From Anaerolinea sp. (GTDB lineage: Bacteria; Chloroflexota; Anaerolineae; Anaerolineales; Anaerolineaceae): DNA of 10,000 nucleotides. A program made the translations under genes and the position numbers. How positions within the stretch are numbered: position 1 is the first letter of the stretch; each line of letters opens with the position of its first letter. Shown here piece after piece: positions 199 through 5,607 of this stretch. A model generated the notes under the pieces. The model was not told the DNA's origin, did no database searches, and saw only the letters and a list, made by a program, of their open reading frames with translations. The DNA lies in NCBI GenBank assembly GCA_020216845.1, contig JAIWNK010000007.1:1-10000 (forward strand), read 5' to 3'.

Positions 199-1362
199 AT
201 GAACTCACGTCCCTCTATACTCATCATTGGCGCTGGTTTTACCGGCTGCGCCCTGGCGCACGACCTCAGCTTACGCGGCGTCAACGTCACCGTCCTTGAA
301 AGAGGCGAAATTGCCTCTGGCACCTCTGGGCGCACACATGGCCTGCTTCATTCTGGAGCGCGCTACTGCGTCACCGACCCAGAAGCCGCCATTGAATGCA
401 TCACCGAAAGCCGCATCCTCAGCCAAATTGCAGCCCAATGCATTGAATACAATGGCGGCCTGTTCGTAGCCTTGAACGACCAAGACCTGGCCTACTCTGC
501 TGCTTTTGAACAAGGCGCCCAGGCAACGGGCATTCCCATTGAACGGCTATCGCCCCAACAGGCCTTACAACGAGAGCCCAATCTCAACCCCAACCTTCTA
601 GCCGCCTACACCGTCCCGGATGGAACATTTGACCCTCTCCGTCTGGCTTTGGCCTTTGCTGCCACAGCTCGACAAAACGGCGCAGTCTTCCTAACCCACC
701 ATGAAGTACAAGCCCTGCACGCAGATGGGCAAGGGCGAATCACCAAACTCACCGCCTGGAATCGCCATACCGGTCAACAGCAAACCTTCACAGCAGACCT
801 GATCATCAGCGCCACCGGCGCCTGGGCAGGGCAAATTGCTGCAATGGTTGGCGCAAGCACCGTTGTCAAACCCACACCGGGCATCATGGTTGCCTACAAT
901 CAACGCCTTGTGCACCATGCCATCAATCGTCTTTGCCCACCCGATGATGGCGACATCCTCATTCCCCAACGTCGCATGGTTGTCATTGGCACAACCTCGT
1001 TCGAAGTTGAAAACCCCGACTACATTCCCATCACCGCCGAACAAACCGAACAAATGCAGCGCGCTGCCGAAGCTCTCGTCCCTGCCATTGCCAACACCCA
1101 ACGGCGCGGCGTTTACATGTCTGCCCGCCCACTCATCGTCTCTGGCAGCAGCGGACGCAGCCTATCCCGCACCTTCAAATGCTATGATCATGAAGCCCTT
1201 GACGGCTTGCCTGGGCTGATTACCATCACCGGCGGTAAAGCCACAACCTGCCGCATCATGGCCGAAAAAACAGCGGATTTAGCCTGTCAAAAACTTGGCC
1301 TCTCCGCCCCCTGCCGGACCAAAGATGTGCCGCTTCGATCCTATCGCCTCTATTATTCATAA
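199..1362 (+). CDS. glpA: FAD-dependent glycerol-3-phosphate dehydrogenase, short GlpA-type (387 aa)
   Basis: Oxidises sn-glycerol-3-phosphate to dihydroxyacetone phosphate using FAD. The N-terminal Rossmann motif GAGFTG is at residues 11-16, with acidic E34 at the end of the second strand. The stretch SGTSGRTHGLLHSGARY (about 40-56) and the C-terminal GGKATTCR (345-352) match E. coli GlpA closely. The protein stops shortly after the segment aligning with E. coli PCTTADLAL, so the roughly 150-residue C-terminal [2Fe-2S]/BFD-like half of GlpA is absent. No remnant follows the stop, and an SdhB-type gene begins 13 bases later. The start ATG abuts the glpK stop and has only a weak upstream purine stretch (GGATCGAG), consistent with coupling. 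Function is well supported. The electron acceptor is inferred to be the SdhBCD-like proteins encoded next. A soluble acceptor or a separate GlpB/GlpC elsewhere is an alternative. Confidence 0.92.
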   Translation: MNSRPSILIIGAGFTGCALAHDLSLRGVNVTVLERGEIASGTSGRTHGLLHSGARYCVTDPEAAIECITESRILSQIAAQCIEYNGGLFVALNDQDLAYSAAFEQGAQATGIPIERLSPQQALQREPNLNPNLLAAYTVPDGTFDPLRLALAFAATARQNGAVFLTHHEVQALHADGQGRITKLTAWNRHTGQQQTFTADLIISATGAWAGQIAAMVGASTVVKPTPGIMVAYNQRLVHHAINRLCPPDDGDILIPQRRMVVIGTTSFEVENPDYIPITAEQTEQMQRAAEALVPAIANTQRRGVYMSARPLIVSGSSGRSLSRTFKCYDHEALDGLPGLITITGGKATTCRIMAEKTADLACQKLGLSAPCRTKDVPLRSYRLYYS

Positions 1363-1366
1363 CCAT

Positions 1367-1371
1367 GGAGG
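1367..1371 (+). promoter_or_regulatory. Shine-Dalgarno fixing the TTG start of the SdhB-type gene
   Basis: GGAGG lies four bases before an in-frame TTG at 1376. The open frame extends back to 1295, but that part overlaps glpA and lacks SdhB similarity. Family similarity begins at LWKITLEI right after the TTG. Confidence 0.7.
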
Positions 1372-1375
1372 AACA

Positions 1376-2119
1376 TTGCCCACCCTCTGGAAAATCACTC
1401 TTGAAATTTTGCGCCAACGGCAAAATCAACCGCCACACGTTGAATTATTTGAATTGGAAGTTGACCCCGATGAAAACGTGCTAGACTGCATTGAACGTGT
1501 CTGGGCATTCCACGACCGAAGCCTCACCTTCCGTCATGCTTGCCACCACTCCACCTGCGGCGCCTGTGGAATGCGCGTCAACGGCGTGGAAAAACTAACC
1601 TGCATCACCCCCGTTCGAGAAGTTACCCACCCCAATGGCGTGCTTCGTGTCGAACCCCTGCGCAACTTCCCCGTCCTCAGCGACCTGGTCGTAGATGTCA
1701 GCGGCTTCTTCCAACGCATGGAACAAACCCAACTTTCTTCCATTGCGCCCCTCTCTCAAGCCAAGCTGCCCTTTGAGCCCAATCCACCCACCATCTGGCA
1801 AGGGCAACGCCTGATTGATTGCATTGAATGCGGCCTATGCGTCAGCGCTTGCCCCGCCGCCAACACCTCAACAAGTTACTTCGGCCCTGCTGTGTTGGCC
1901 GCCGCCCAACACGTCTACCGACAAACAAACAACCCAACTGTGATGCAACTTGTCAACTGCGCCGACGGATTATGGCGTTGTCACAGCGCCTATGAATGCT
2001 CTGCCGTATGCCCATCCAACGTAGACCCGGCCTGGCGCATCATGGATATGCGCCGCGCCACTGTCGCACATTCGCTGCGCAACATCTTCAAACGTCCCAA
2101 TCAAAAGGTTGCTCCATGA
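1376..2119 (+). CDS. sdhB: Succinate dehydrogenase/fumarate reductase-type iron-sulfur subunit (SdhB-like, 247 aa, TTG start)
   Basis: This is the electron-wire subunit of complex II-type enzymes. It carries a [2Fe-2S], a [4Fe-4S] and a [3Fe-4S] cluster from a flavoprotein towards membrane quinone. Counting from the TTG, the plant-type [2Fe-2S] ligands are C56, C61, C64 and C76 (C-x4-C-x2-C-x11-C). CIECGLCVSACP gives C149, C152, C155 and C159, and CHSAYECSAVCP gives C202, C208 and C212. By analogy with E. coli SdhB, C149/C152/C155/C212 hold [4Fe-4S] and C159/C202/C208 hold [3Fe-4S]. Length is normal for the family. It starts 13 bases after glpA, and its TGA overlaps the sdhC ATG (ATGA). The usual partner sdhA is absent here, so GlpA is the only flavoprotein encoded beside it. 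Partnering with an SdhA encoded elsewhere cannot be excluded. Confidence 0.9.
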   Translation: MPTLWKITLEILRQRQNQPPHVELFELEVDPDENVLDCIERVWAFHDRSLTFRHACHHSTCGACGMRVNGVEKLTCITPVREVTHPNGVLRVEPLRNFPVLSDLVVDVSGFFQRMEQTQLSSIAPLSQAKLPFEPNPPTIWQGQRLIDCIECGLCVSACPAANTSTSYFGPAVLAAAQHVYRQTNNPTVMQLVNCADGLWRCHSAYECSAVCPSNVDPAWRIMDMRRATVAHSLRNIFKRPNQKVAP

Positions 2120-2499
2120 ATCAACCCTCGCCCCGCAATATCCTACGCTGGTTTGACCCCCGCCATCGCCAACCCGGCACCTGGGCCTTCATCCTCAACC
2201 GCATTACTGCCCTCGGCCTAACTCTCTACCTCGCCATGCATCTGATTGTGCTAGGCAAACTTGCCCAAGGCCCCGCTGCCTATGATTCCTTTGTTGCCCT
2301 GGCGCACAGCCCATTGGTCAAAATTGGCGAAATGCTCGTCATCGCCGCCGGAATCCTACACGGTTTGAATGGCTTGCGCGTCGCCATCACCAGCCTTGGC
2401 TTTGCCACCCGCTATCAAAGGCAACTCCTTTGGGCAAGCACAATCCTATCAGGAATTTTAATCCTCATTTTTGCCCGCGCCATGTTCCTTGGAGGTTAA
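2116..2499 (+). CDS. sdhC: SdhC-type cytochrome b membrane anchor (127 aa)
   Basis: A hydrophobic subunit that anchors an SdhB-type protein to the membrane and forms the quinone/heme site. Three membrane segments are visible at about residues 24-48, 68-92 and 104-124. LNRITALGL (27-35) aligns with the quinone-site region of SdhC, with R29 as the candidate conserved arginine. H42 in helix 1 and H82 in HGLNGLR of helix 2 are candidate heme b ligands; HGLNGLR is a typical SdhC/D heme-helix sequence. The ATG overlaps the sdhB stop by four bases and has AAAAGG seven bases upstream. An in-frame extension back to 1996 overlaps sdhB and lacks family similarity. Assignment to the SdhC family is firm. 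Which dehydrogenase it serves is inferred. Confidence 0.87.
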   Translation: MNQPSPRNILRWFDPRHRQPGTWAFILNRITALGLTLYLAMHLIVLGKLAQGPAAYDSFVALAHSPLVKIGEMLVIAAGILHGLNGLRVAITSLGFATRYQRQLLWASTILSGILILIFARAMFLGG

Positions 2500-2502
2500 A
2501 GC

Positions 2503-2871
2503 ATGACCCAAATTTCACATCCATCCAATCCCAAAGAGCCTCTTGGACTATGGTTATTCAAAATCATCACCGGCCCGATCATCCTTGTCATCCTAACCAT
2601 CCATTTCCTGGTCAATCACTTGCTGGCACCAAACGGCCTGCTCACCTACGCAGAAGTCATTGCTTATTATAAAAACCCCATCGTCCCCATCATGGAAATC
2701 ATCTTTGTATGCTTTGCCGTTGCACACTCACTCACCGGCCTGCGCGGCATTGTGCTAGACCTCAACCCATCCCAACGCATTCTGCGGATATTCGATTGGC
2801 TTCTGCTCATTCTTGGCAGCACTGCCATCCTATACGGCATTTGGTTGGCCCTGACCATTGCCTCAGCATAG
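2503..2871 (+). CDS. sdhD: SdhD-type membrane anchor (122 aa)
   Basis: Second hydrophobic anchor of a complex II-like module. Three membrane segments are visible at about residues 17-38, 60-84 and 94-118. AHSLTGLRGIVLDL (74-87) is the heme-binding helix sequence of this family, with H75 as candidate ligand. H34 and H39 in HFLVNH lie at the end of helix 1. Together with H42 and H82 of the SdhC partner, this gives enough histidines for two b hemes, as in complex II enzymes with two small anchors. The gene starts three bases after sdhC ends, with GGAGG (2491-2495) placed seven bases before the ATG inside the sdhC tail, so the two subunits are probably made in equal amounts. Sequence assignment is good; the physiological partner is uncertain. 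Confidence 0.83.
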   Translation: MTQISHPSNPKEPLGLWLFKIITGPIILVILTIHFLVNHLLAPNGLLTYAEVIAYYKNPIVPIMEIIFVCFAVAHSLTGLRGIVLDLNPSQRILRIFDWLLLILGSTAILYGIWLALTIASA

Positions 2872-2877
2872 GACGAT

Positions 2878-4155
2878 ATGGCACACCACACCGTCCGCTC
2901 TGGTTTTTCTCAACTAGCTGACCGTCTCAACCGTTTTCCTCAAGGCGCCCCTCCTGGTCCAACCCTCTTCAAACTACTTCGTGTACTGATGAGCGAGCGC
3001 GAAGCTGAACTCATCTCCTTGCTCCCCATCAGGCCCTTCAAGGCCGAAACAGCGGCGCGTGCCTGGAACATGCCTTTGGCCCAAGCACAAAGCAAACTCG
3101 ATGAATTGGCCGGACGCGCCCTTCTCTTGGATATCCTCGGCGAGCAAGGCTATCAATACGTCCTACCACCGCCCATGGCAGGCTTCTTTGAATTTTCACT
3201 GATGCGTCTGCGCAATGACCTCGATCAGCACCTGCTTTCAGAACTCTTCTATCAATATCTCAATGTTGAAGAAGACTTCATCCGCTCCCTCTTCATCGGT
3301 GGCGAAACCCAAATGGGCCGCATCTTTGTTCAAGAACCTATGCTGCCTACCACCAACACGCTCACCGTTCTGGACTATGAGCGCGCCAGCCACATCATCC
3401 GCACCGCCAGGCACATCGGCGTTGGCATGTGCTACTGCCGTCACAAAATGAGCCATATCGGACAAGCCTGTAACGCCCCCATGAACATTTGCATGACCTT
3501 TGGCAACACCGCCGATTCACTCATCCGTCATGAATATGCCCGTCGAATTGACGCTGCTGAATGCCTCGACCTGCTTGCCCAAGCATATGAGCACGGCCTG
3601 GTGCAATTTGGTGAAAACGCTCAAGAAAACGTCAGCTTTCTATGCAATTGTTGTGGATGTTGTTGCGAGGCCATGCAAGCCGCACGACGTTTTGCCATTC
3701 TCAACCCAATCCACACCACCAATTTCCTTCCCACCCTCACCCCTGAAGCCTGCACAGGTTGTGGCAAATGCATCAGCGCCTGTCCAGTAGAAGCCATGAG
3801 CCTGGTATCTGCCCACGATCCACTGCGCCCACAAGCACGCAAAGCGCATCTCAACGTCGAAACTTGCCTCGGCTGCGGTGTTTGCGTACGTTCCTGCCCC
3901 CATAATGCCCTAAAGCTTGAACAACGTCCACAGCGCGTCATCACCCCTGTCAACGGTGCCCATCGCATCGTGCTGATGGCCATTGAACGCGGCAACTTAC
4001 AAAACCTCATTTTTGATCAACAAGCGTTGGCATCTCATCGCGCCATGGCTGCTATCCTTGGCGTCATCTTACGCTTGCCACCTGCCAAACAAATCCTTGC
4101 CAACAAGCAAATCAAATCCCGCTATCTCGCTGCCCTCTTAGACAAAGCGAACTAG
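2878..4155 (+). CDS. Cysteine-rich 4Fe-4S protein with two ferredoxin motifs and an N-terminal winged-helix-like region (425 aa)
   Basis: Not recognised as a named gene; likely an electron-transfer or sensory iron-sulfur protein in the cytoplasm. Residues about 38-95 have helical character resembling a winged-helix domain. A central region carries C185-Y-C187-R, C198, C205 and then the dense run CNCCGCCC (256-263). Two classic bacterial ferredoxin motifs follow: C292/C295/C298/C302-P and C330/C333/C336/C340-P, each C-x2-C-x2-C-x3-CP. No membrane segments are visible. It starts six bases after the sdhD-type gene with an AGGA before the ATG, so it is part of the glpKA-sdhBCD operon. That context suggests it exchanges electrons with the GlpA/SdhBCD-like system, or links it to ferredoxin, but this is inference. 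A redox-responsive regulator is an alternative because of the N-terminal region. Confidence 0.8.
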   Translation: MAHHTVRSGFSQLADRLNRFPQGAPPGPTLFKLLRVLMSEREAELISLLPIRPFKAETAARAWNMPLAQAQSKLDELAGRALLLDILGEQGYQYVLPPPMAGFFEFSLMRLRNDLDQHLLSELFYQYLNVEEDFIRSLFIGGETQMGRIFVQEPMLPTTNTLTVLDYERASHIIRTARHIGVGMCYCRHKMSHIGQACNAPMNICMTFGNTADSLIRHEYARRIDAAECLDLLAQAYEHGLVQFGENAQENVSFLCNCCGCCCEAMQAARRFAILNPIHTTNFLPTLTPEACTGCGKCISACPVEAMSLVSAHDPLRPQARKAHLNVETCLGCGVCVRSCPHNALKLEQRPQRVITPVNGAHRIVLMAIERGNLQNLIFDQQALASHRAMAAILGVILRLPPAKQILANKQIKSRYLAALLDKAN

Positions 4156-4166
4156 CACAAACTCTC

Positions 4167-4195
4167 TTGACGAAATTGACCTCCACAGCTAAAAT
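4167..4195 (+). promoter_or_regulatory. Sigma-70 type promoter of rplY
   Basis: TTGACG (4167-4172) and TAAAAT (4190-4195) are separated by 17 bases, close to the housekeeping consensus (five of six matches each). Transcription would begin near 4202, giving a 5' leader of about 78 bases. It lies in the only sizeable intergenic gap of the + strand half, directly after the iron-sulfur gene, so L25 has its own promoter. Confidence 0.75.
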
Positions 4196-4228
4196 TAGCC
4201 CTCGTGGTTTTCCACAAAATCCAACATC

Positions 4229-4266
4229 GAGCGAAGGTAACCCCCACCGAGGGGTGAGAGGCGCTC
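4229..4266 (+). promoter_or_regulatory. Candidate L25-binding leader hairpin that mimics 5S rRNA loop E
   Basis: The RNA folds as an outer stem GAGCG (4229-4233) with CGCUC (4262-4266) and an inner stem ACCCC (4240-4244) with GGGGU (4251-4255) closed by a six-base loop. Between the stems is a symmetric 6x6 internal loop, AAGGUA (4234-4239) opposite GAGAGG (4256-4261). E. coli 5S rRNA loop E has AUGGUA opposite GAGAGU. The four non-canonical pairs G-A, G-G, U-A and A-G are reproduced in the same order and with the same strand topology. Loop E is the established binding site of L25/TL5/CTC proteins. The Shine-Dalgarno AAAGGA (4267-4272) directly follows the outer stem, so bound L25 could block ribosome access. 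The fold and match are read from sequence; autoregulation is inference. Confidence 0.65.
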
Positions 4267-4279
4267 AAAGGAAAGTACA

Positions 4280-4918
4280 ATGAACAAAATCATCCTTCAT
4301 GCCACCCCGCGTTCCATCACCGGCAAGAAAGTCGGTGCACTGCGTCGCGAAGGCAAACTGCCCGGCATTCTCTACGGGCACCAATTCCCCTCCACGCCAG
4401 TTCTCTTCGACCTGCGTGAAACGAGCCGCGCCTTGCAAGGCCTGACAGCCTCCAGCATCATCACGGTAGAGCTAAATGGTCAGGAACATGCCGTCCTCGT
4501 CCGCGAGAAACAGCGCGACTACATTCGCAACGTTCTCCTACACGTAGATTTGCAAGTTGTGTCACTCACCGAGAAACTGCGCGTCAAAGTCAATGTTGAG
4601 CTGACAGGCACAGCCCCTGCCGTCAAAGATTTCAACGGCGTTGTTGTCACCGGCATTGATAAAATTGAAGTAGAAGCCTTCCCTCAAGATTTGCCCGAAC
4701 GCATTACGGTGGACATCAGCAAACTCACCAAGATTGGCGATGCCATCTACGTTCGCGACCTGCAAATCCCAGCCAATGTTGAAGTCCTCGAAGACCCCAA
4801 CGAAACGATTGTCACCATTGCCTCCGAAATGGGCGAGGAAACGGCTGAGGAAGAATCCTCCATTGCTGAACCAGAAGTGATTGAACGCGGCAAGAAAGAA
4901 GAAGAACCAATAGACTAA
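4280..4918 (+). CDS. rplY: 50S ribosomal protein L25, long CTC/TL5 type (212 aa)
   Basis: Binds loop E of 5S rRNA in the central protuberance of the large ribosomal subunit. The N-terminal L25 domain covers about residues 1-95 and contains GKKVGALRREGKLPGILYG (15-33), typical of the family; REKQRDYIRNVLLHVDLQ (75-92) closes it. A second all-beta TL5/CTC domain spans about 96-185. A tail of about 27 residues is rich in glutamate. The length fits the two-domain CTC form rather than the single-domain E. coli form. The ATG is preceded by AAAGGA with a seven-base spacer. The gene has its own promoter and a strong terminator and is probably monocistronic. The leader hairpin upstream suggests feedback control by the protein. 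Confidence 0.95.
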   Translation: MNKIILHATPRSITGKKVGALRREGKLPGILYGHQFPSTPVLFDLRETSRALQGLTASSIITVELNGQEHAVLVREKQRDYIRNVLLHVDLQVVSLTEKLRVKVNVELTGTAPAVKDFNGVVVTGIDKIEVEAFPQDLPERITVDISKLTKIGDAIYVRDLQIPANVEVLEDPNETIVTIASEMGEETAEEESSIAEPEVIERGKKEEEPID

Positions 4919-4937: not shown

Positions 4938-4982
4938 TCTCCGGGGTTTCAATCACAATGATTGAAATCCCGGAGAATTTTT
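4938..4982 (+). terminator. Strong intrinsic terminator of rplY, probably bidirectional
   Basis: An 18-bp stem (4938-4955 with 4959-4976, one G-T pair at 4946/4968) closes a three-base CAA loop and is followed by TTTTT at 4978-4982. On the - strand the same hairpin is followed after a short gap by TTTT (complement of 4931-4934), so it can also serve the convergent Nudix operon. The Nudix stop codon lies inside the stem. Confidence 0.92.
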
Positions 4983-5554
4983 AACAACCGAACTGTTATC
5001 AAAGCCGTAATCCCCCACAAAATCTGTCCTTCATAAGGCTCATAATAAATTACATCCATCGTCTGACCGCGCAACTCCGTAGGGCGAATACTGAAATTTC
5101 CGGGCGCATCTAACCAACGCAACGGAACATGAAAAACTTGAGCAACCTCATCCTGCGAGATACGCAACCCATACGGCCATGGAATCACACCCACAAAAGG
5201 CGTTACCAAAAAATTACTGATCGTCAAAAACTCATCCATGGAGCCCAATAACCGCACGTCAGCCGGATGAACACCAATCTCTTCCTCAGCCTCCCGCAGT
5301 GCCGTCTCTTGTAAACTTTGATCCCTTGCTTCTTGGCCCCCCCCTGGAAACGCCACCTGCCCGCGATGATCTTGCAAATGTTCCGACCGACGAATATATA
5401 ACAAATGCCACTCCTCATTCGCACGAAACATTGGCAACAACACCGCCGCCCTACGCACACCGTTTGGCGTTTCTTCATAAGAACGTTTGCCAGCCTGCAT
5501 CAACGCACGACGAATACACTCTTCTGTCAGAGCGCCCAACCACAGATCACTCAT
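4949..5554 (-). CDS. Nudix hydrolase, CoA-pyrophosphatase (NudL/YeaB) type (201 aa)
   Basis: Likely hydrolyses a nucleoside-diphosphate linkage such as that of coenzyme A or its oxidised derivatives. The family signature LLYIRRSEHLQDHRGQVAFP at residues 51-70 leads into GGG and the Nudix helix REAEEEIGV (87-95). The canonical Nudix-box glutamate eight residues before R87 is Q79, preceded by D78. CoA-pyrophosphatases such as E. coli NudL also deviate here, so this is not a sign of inactivity. The ATG at 5554 is preferred over an in-frame GTG at 5575, because GGGAGG (5565-5570) lies between them and serves the ATG. It is the last gene of the - strand operon, 53 bases after trmI. Its final eight codons and stop form part of the shared terminator hairpin. 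Substrate is inferred from the family only. Confidence 0.87.
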   Translation of the reverse strand: MSDLWLGALTEECIRRALMQAGKRSYEETPNGVRRAAVLLPMFRANEEWHLLYIRRSEHLQDHRGQVAFPGGGQEARDQSLQETALREAEEEIGVHPADVRLLGSMDEFLTISNFLVTPFVGVIPWPYGLRISQDEVAQVFHVPLRWLDAPGNFSIRPTELRGQTMDVIYYEPYEGQILWGITALITVRLLKILRDFNHCD

Positions 5555-5564
5555 TGCTCCGCAG

Positions 5565-5570
5565 CCTCCC
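5565..5570 (-). promoter_or_regulatory. Shine-Dalgarno deciding the Nudix start
   Basis: GGGAGG on the - strand sits ten bases before the ATG at 5554. The upstream GTG at 5575 would place this site inside the coding region and has no purine-rich site of its own. Confidence 0.55.
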
Positions 5571-5607
5571 TGCACAAACAGTCACAGTAAGCGACCATTG
5601 TGTTTCT

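What the first reader, a model, noticed from the sequence alone, without database searches (positions are those of the whole stretch)
4229..4272. rplY leader contains a 5S rRNA loop E mimic next to the Shine-Dalgarno
L25 binds loop E of 5S rRNA (established). The leader of its gene folds into two stems flanking a 6x6 internal loop, AAGGUA opposite GAGAGG; E. coli loop E is AUGGUA opposite GAGAGU. The four central non-canonical pairs (G-A, G-G, U-A, A-G) are identical, and the strand order, with a GC-rich hairpin capping the loop, matches helix IV of 5S rRNA. The outer stem ends one base before the AAAGGA site, so L25 binding would hide the site. L25 autoregulation has been described for gammaproteobacteria as I recall it; a clear loop E mimic in this lineage would be a new ribosomal leader class as far as I know.
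Basis: partly seen in the sequence, partly recalled or inferred. Interest (0 to 1): 0.88.

Follow-up and report, generated by a model that had tools for sequence, protein, structure and literature searches.

The report
L25 messenger leader copying 5S rRNA
The start of the messenger RNA for ribosomal protein L25 in this group of bacteria carries a small look-alike of the spot on 5S ribosomal RNA that L25 normally grips, which very probably lets surplus L25 shut off its own production.

Summary
Window 4229-4266 is a two-stem hairpin around a 6x6 internal loop AAGGUA/GAGAGG; it abuts the Shine-Dalgarno of a two-domain (TL5-type) L25 gene that has a promoter-like site and a terminator of its own. 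Of 52 genomes with an L25 match (this one and 51 relatives), 46 carry it: 43 canonical, 3 variants, 6 none. Both stems covary. 5S loop E reads AUGGUA/GAGAGU in 27 of 30 loci from these genomes. A genome-wide model scan hit 32 of 400 genomes of the phylum once each; all 30 hits held as loci lie directly before L25. Rfam 15 has no match here; the L25 leader it has for E. coli, RF03131, is different.

New here: family f16 of the same class has another L25 leader with the two loop E strands in swapped order, UGAGUA...(G/A)AUGG(G/A), also covarying. Two unlike architectures sharing little but the loop E core before the same gene make L25 the likely ligand. Best reading: autogenous translational repression by rRNA mimicry, a new L25 leader class in two topologies. 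Binding and repression are inferred; in 14 of 26 f16 leaders the Shine-Dalgarno is not adjacent.

The parts
4167..4195 (+). Promoter-like TTGACG - 17 nt - TAAAAT
   Evidence: 10 of 12 matches; mean 0.1 sites in shuffles; a promoter-like site lies 19-89 nt upstream of the hairpin in 24 of 30 loci
4204..4215 (+). Small 5'-proximal stem-loop GTGG-TTTT-CCAC, function unknown
   Evidence: fold; small stem-loops at this place seen by eye in several relatives, not tested
4229..4233 (+). Outer stem, 5' arm GAGCG
   Evidence: 4 of 5 pairs have a change on both sides somewhere
4234..4239 (+). Loop E mimic, 5' strand AAGGTA (5S of relatives: ATGGTA)
4240..4255 (+). Capping hairpin ACCCC-CACCGA-GGGGT
   Evidence: 4 of 5 pairs have a change on both sides somewhere
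4256..4261 (+). Loop E mimic, 3' strand GAGAGG (5S of relatives: GAGAGT)
4262..4266 (+). Outer stem, 3' arm CGCTC
4267..4272 (+). Shine-Dalgarno AAAGGA abutting the outer stem
   Evidence: an SD-like tetramer starts 0-2 nt after the stem in 30 of 30 loci
4280..4918 (+). rplY: two-domain ribosomal protein bL25 (TL5 type), 212 aa
   Evidence: PF01386 and PF14693; matches to solved L25 chains
4938..4976 (+). Intrinsic-terminator-like site after rplY (18-pair stem, T tail), so the transcript is probably monocistronic

Best explanation
The hairpin is a cis-acting RNA that imitates loop E of 5S rRNA. When L25 is made faster than 5S rRNA can take it up, free L25 binds the mimic in its own mRNA, stabilises a hairpin whose outer stem ends directly at the Shine-Dalgarno, and keeps the 30S subunit off the start site; when 5S rRNA is plentiful it wins L25 away and translation resumes. 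SHOWN: structure, covariation, placement before L25, identity of the loop core to loop E of relatives, conserved candidate binding residues of L25. INFERRED: L25 binding, repression, competition with 5S rRNA. In family f16 the same core is presented with its strands in swapped order, as if the hairpin loop had been moved to the other end of the motif; this looks like a separate origin of the same regulation (inference).
For: 30 of 30 loci held for L25 homology keep GGUA/(G/A)AGAGG with a stem on either side; 46 of 52 genomes with L25 keep some form. Covariation: 37 cells changed on both sides against 12.1 shuffled, 0 of 500 as high. 5S loop E AUGGUA/GAGAGU in 27 of 30 loci. R1 hit 32 of 400 genomes of the phylum, one place each; 30 of the 32 were held as loci and 30 of 30 lie 10-20 nt before L25 on its strand. 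SD-like tetramer 0-2 nt after the stem in 30 of 30. Swapped-strand leader in 28 of 28 f16 loci (26 by pattern; 2 by eye), 30 double-change cells against 10.3 shuffled, 0 of 500; f16 5S keeps GAUGGUA and AGAGUA in 19 of 19 sequences read. The Arg, Arg, Tyr, His and Asp positions that I recall as L25/TL5 contacts to 5S rRNA are kept in all 9 proteins aligned (a hand-picked set).
Against: No binding or expression data. The outer two loop pairs of the window type differ from 5S (A.G and A.G against A-U and U.G). No leader in 6 of the 52 genomes (sampled members of f3, f4, f10, f15), although both f4 genomes have a canonical 5S loop E. In f16, 13 of 26 leaders have the SD-like sequence 11-22 nt beyond the stem and one (L271) lies several hundred nt upstream of the gene, so direct occlusion fits those less well; two of the five covariation measures for f16 do not clearly beat the shuffles (101 of 500 and 21 of 500 as high). 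In f2 the 5S loop E is altered (AUGCUA/GAAAGU) while its leaders keep GG/GAG in a reduced loop. The known autoregulated E. coli leader is not found by R1 or R2.
Confidence: 0.86

Rival explanations
1. L25 binds the mimic but the effect is not SD occlusion: it alters mRNA decay, or holds nascent mRNA near 5S rRNA for assembly.
For: In 13 of 26 f16 leaders the SD-like sequence lies 11-22 nt past the stem, and in L271 the leader is far upstream.
Against: In the window's order an SD-like tetramer starts 0-2 nt after the stem in 30 of 30 loci, hard to explain without a link to initiation.
Confidence: 0.08
2. The hairpin is a generic structural element (5' stabiliser, standby site, thermometer) that merely resembles loop E.
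For: Loop E-like motifs rich in G and A occur in many RNAs (recalled); hairpins near an SD are common (recalled).
Against: Placement before L25, loop more conserved than the stems, second architecture with the same core before the same gene, 1 descriptor hit away from the leaders in 828,184 bases.
Confidence: 0.04
3. A remnant of a duplicated 5S rRNA gene that was captured upstream of rplY.
For: The loop strands match 5S.
Against: The stems do not resemble helix sequences of 5S by eye; R1 finds no 5S in the 28 of 30 5S loci searched; the f16 strands are in swapped order.
Confidence: 0.02

Closest known systems
L25-Gammaproteobacteria ribosomal protein leader, Rfam RF03131 (E. coli rplY autoregulation, Aseev et al. 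2015)
   Same: Short irregular hairpin before rplY; autogenous repression in vivo is reported there according to the review PMC10931766 section 3.8 (passages seen; Aseev 2015 itself not read).
   Different: RF03131 is 26 positions long and hits E. coli (L209 1971-1996) but not the window or the 7 Chloroflexota loci tested. E. coli uses a weak GAGA SD and one-domain L25; the review calls those features special to species with a short bL25. Here there is an AAAGGA SD, a two-domain L25 and an explicit loop E.
Loop E / helix IV of bacterial 5S rRNA
   Same: Four central non-canonical pairs, strand order and capping hairpin (window type); 5 of 6 loop pairs in swapped order (f16 type).
   Different: Stems unlike in sequence; the two outer loop pairs differ in the window type; lies in an mRNA leader.
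rRNA-mimic r-protein leaders in general (uL1, uS8, bL20, uS15 of some lineages, in PMC10931766; passages seen)
   Same: mRNA site resembling the rRNA site of the encoded protein, near the translation start.
   Different: Different protein and rRNA (5S); two topologies of one motif in two families of one class.

Membership tests
L25-Gammaproteobacteria leader RF03131 | Match to the Rfam covariance model | tested here: not met
   No match at E up to 10 in the window nor at E up to 1 in the 7 Chloroflexota loci scanned (L006, L023, L027, L278, L281, L284, L294); E. coli control matches at 46.9 bits
L25-Gammaproteobacteria leader RF03131 | Weak GAGA Shine-Dalgarno and short one-domain bL25 (as in review PMC10931766, passages) | tested here: not met
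   AAAGGA at 4267-4272; PF01386 plus PF14693, 212 aa
rRNA-mimic ribosomal protein leader (general kind) | Conserved structure with compensatory changes in a 5' UTR | tested here: met
rRNA-mimic ribosomal protein leader (general kind) | Lies directly before the gene of the candidate ligand | tested here: met
rRNA-mimic ribosomal protein leader (general kind) | Resembles the rRNA binding site of that protein | tested here: met
   that L25 binds loop E is recalled and stated in the finding, not tested here
rRNA-mimic ribosomal protein leader (general kind) | The protein binds the leader and represses expression | not testable with these tools
   needs biochemistry
5S rRNA loop E motif | Symmetric loop with GGUA opposite GAGA between two helices | tested here: met
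   (sequence and secondary structure; 3D geometry not tested)

The most novel reading that the evidence does not exclude
L25 autoregulation by direct loop E mimicry arose at least twice in one bacterial class, once in the strand order of 5S rRNA and once with the strands swapped (a circular permutation of the motif), in bacteria with two-domain L25, a form for which a 2023-24 review holds the E. coli-type control features not to occur. It implies that L25 reads the non-canonical helix itself, whichever end is closed by a hairpin loop.
Probability: 0.75. Interest if true: 0.82.

Novelty: new variant of a known kind. Interest (0 to 1): 0.75.

Why it matters
It would be a very explicit case of 5S rRNA mimicry in a messenger, extend L25 autoregulation to the Chloroflexota and to two-domain L25, and provide a natural permutation experiment on what L25 recognises. 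The claim is directly testable with one protein and a hairpin of about 40 nt.

Tried and rejected
Rfam scan for a known family: none at the leader. A weak Na+ riboswitch-like match at 1431-1374 minus strand (E 0.095, below gathering score) overlaps coding sequence and is taken as chance. R1 and R2 on L25 loci elsewhere: in 60 Chloroflexota genomes outside the order R1's best was E 0.36 and R2 found only the two f16 loci (L211, L214); in 100 of the 101 loci L306-L406 (L405 left out of both calls: other families of the class, 30 loci from the phylum of an Acidobacteria genome plus that genome, and 2 Actinobacteria) the best was E 0.22 (default filters). An R2 match in E. coli at L209 811-921 (E 0.0038) lies inside radD and is taken as chance. 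5S remnant thought unlikely. The swapped-strand descriptor found 2 places in the 118 pattern loci (0-1 per shuffled copy), neither at a leader, and 21 of 28 f16 loci with an outer stem of 3; its zero in 161 other L25 loci is a weak negative, since with 4 outer pairs it misses the f16 loci L211 and L214 among them. R1 and R2 used a first look that scored only 16 and 27 candidates per genome, so their counts are lower bounds; R2 found 8 of 10 f16 genomes if the draw was that, where I counted f16 members. Tandem repeats, composition, structure prediction and fold searches were not run.

Literature: searches of the held open library (listings with titles and abstract starts) showed no title or abstract about a loop E mimic before rplY; most listed papers were not opened (PMC4647458 and PMC6097659, which mention L25 and rplY, among them). 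Passages seen: PMC10931766, PMC7247131 ('Chloroflexi' and 'loop E' do not occur in its main text), PMC11109978 (one reference), PMC6429828 and PMC2965389 (no occurrence of the terms). Aseev 2015 and Weinberg 2017 are not held and were not read; Meyer 2018 was not tried; no supplements were read. 'Not in print' is limited to this.

Full report
What is there. The window is a whole 10-kb contig (G000:C145) of an incomplete genome. Its rplY gene (4280-4918, +) encodes a two-domain L25: PF01386 plus the TL5 C-terminal domain PF14693, matching solved L25 chains such as 1feu (E 3.8e-26). Upstream come a promoter-like TTGACG-17-TAAAAT at 4167-4195, a small stem-loop 4204-4215, the loop E hairpin 4229-4266, the SD 4267-4272 and ATG at 4280. 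An 18-pair terminator-like site follows at 4938-4976. A transcription start near 4202 and a leader of about 78 nt are inferred.

Conservation. 52 of 61 genomes (this one, 36 of its family, 24 of its order) have an L25 match; the 30 best were held as loci, the window being L001. Read without regard to the leader, 30 of 30 have the hairpin; the 5' strand starts AA in 21, AG in 8, AT in 1, and the 3' strand is GAGAGG in 26 and AAGAGG in 4. Of the other 22 genomes, 20 were fetched: 11 canonical, 3 variants (L407 and L417 with a reduced AAGG/GAGG loop, L421 with an extra U), 6 without (L408, L409, L413, L416, L418, L422). The last two, G010 and G060, are canonical (L062, L085). Total: 46 of 52. By family handle the leader is seen in f1, f2 (variant), f5-f9 and f11-f14, and not in the sampled members of f3, f4, f10, f15 (1, 2, 2 and 1 genomes).

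Covariation. On alignment A1 95.0% of cells pair, 8 of 10 pairs have a change on both sides, 37 cells against 12.1 shuffled, and the score is 0.365 against 0.148, with 0 of 500 shuffles as high on all five measures; sliding the partner lowers every measure. Ten of the twelve loop columns are invariant, against four of the twenty stem columns.

Specificity. The R1 scan of 400 genomes of the phylum found 32, one match each, all of the window's family or order; 4 same-order genomes are listed without a match (one of them, G037, has the f2 variant; another, G039, lacks the leader). Of the 32 matches 30 were held as loci, and 30 of 30 are canonical and stand 10-20 nt before an L25 frame on the same strand. 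115 of 118 form all five outer pairs; 112 of these have L25 9-22 nt downstream on the same strand and 3 (L150, L163, L192) are near the end of the stretch held. The other 3 (Streptomyces, an Acidobacterium, Microbacterium) have at most 2 outer pairs and no L25 (titles). The titles of the 115 name Anaerolineales, Anaerolineaceae, Anaerolineae or Chloroflexi/Chloroflexota and genera such as Leptolinea, Longilinea, Levilinea, Thermanaerothrix; one MAG is titled Herpetosiphon.

5S rRNA. Of 45 5S matches in these genomes 30 were held as loci. 25 have ATGGTA/GAGAGT with standard flanks and 2 more with changed flanks (L044, L052). L036 and L039 (both f2) have ATGCTA/GAAAGT, and L034 (f6) ATGATA/GAAAGT. 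Against the common loop E the window type keeps the four central pairs G.A, G.G, U.A, A.G and differs at the two outer ones.

The second leader. Among 60 L25 upstreams from the rest of the phylum two, both of family f16 (same class, other order), carried GAGTAGG and CCGATGG, the 5S strands in swapped order. A search of f16 gave L25 in 27 of 28 genomes, 28 loci. 26 of 28 fit a swapped-strand pattern; L287 (long capping arm) and L288 (one mismatch in the outer stem) fit by eye. Alignment A2 (26 rows, 24 distinct): 91.2% of cells paired, 30 double-change cells against 10.3 shuffled (0 of 500), score 0.392 against 0.154 (0 of 500); but pairs with double change (6 against 4.7; 101 of 500 as high) and further pair types (15 against 12.0; 21 of 500) are weaker, and one outer pair is broken in 12 of 24 rows. 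In register, five of six loop pairs equal 5S pairs (A.G, A-U, U.G, G.A, G.G). Deviations: A.A at the cap end in 6 of 26, GTAAGTA in 1, GATGGAG in 2. f16 5S keeps GATGGTA and AGAGTA in 19 of 19 sequences read, from 19 of the 25 f16 genomes searched. The R2 scan of the class found 8 of 199 genomes, all f16, one match each. The scientific name of f16 is not known here.

Mechanism. In the window's order an SD-like tetramer starts 0-2 nt after the outer stem in 30 of 30, so a hairpin locked by L25 would stand in the 30S landing site. In f16 the SD-like sequence lies within 6 nt in 12 of 26, 11-22 nt away in 13, and L271's leader is several hundred nt upstream (L287 and L288 not in that count), so how control works there is open. 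Competition between 5S rRNA and mRNA for L25 is the usual logic of r-protein autoregulation and is inferred.

Known and new. Rfam 15 holds an L25-Gammaproteobacteria leader (RF03131) that matches E. coli and none of the 7 Chloroflexota loci scanned, nor the window. The review PMC10931766 says the E. coli-type features occur only with short bL25 (passages). PMC7247131 mentions an L25 leader in Enterobacteria (passage). Within the searches named, the window's element is a new L25 leader class by structure and lineage, and the swapped-strand form a second one.

Noticed in passing
L036, L039 (5S) and L407, L417 (leaders) of family f2: 5S loop E changed to AUGCUA/GAAAGU in two genera while their L25 leaders shrank to AAGG/GAGG; rRNA and mRNA targets both changed in one family.
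   Followed up: partly
L034, G054: 5S with AUGAUA/GAAAGU in a fragmented genome whose L25 leader (L420) is canonical; possibly a foreign contig.
   Followed up: no
window 4204-4215 and the same place in several relatives: A small stem-loop between the promoter and the loop E hairpin (often CGGC-loop-GCCG in relatives, by eye).
   Followed up: no
window 199-4155: FAD-dependent oxidoreductase, iron-sulfur subunit, two Sdh_cyt membrane subunits and a 4Fe-4S protein in one direction, a succinate dehydrogenase/fumarate reductase-like cluster ending just before rplY.
   Followed up: partly
window 4938-4976: The terminator-like site of rplY overlaps the 3' end of the convergent NUDIX gene (4949-5575, minus).
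   Followed up: no
window 1374-1431, minus strand: Weak Na+ riboswitch-like match (24.8 bits, E 0.095, gathering score 40.5) over coding sequence; probably chance.
   Followed up: no
L271 1131-1168: Swapped-strand loop E leader standing several hundred nt upstream of L25 in one f16 genome, with three copies of a short direct repeat between them (by eye).
   Followed up: no
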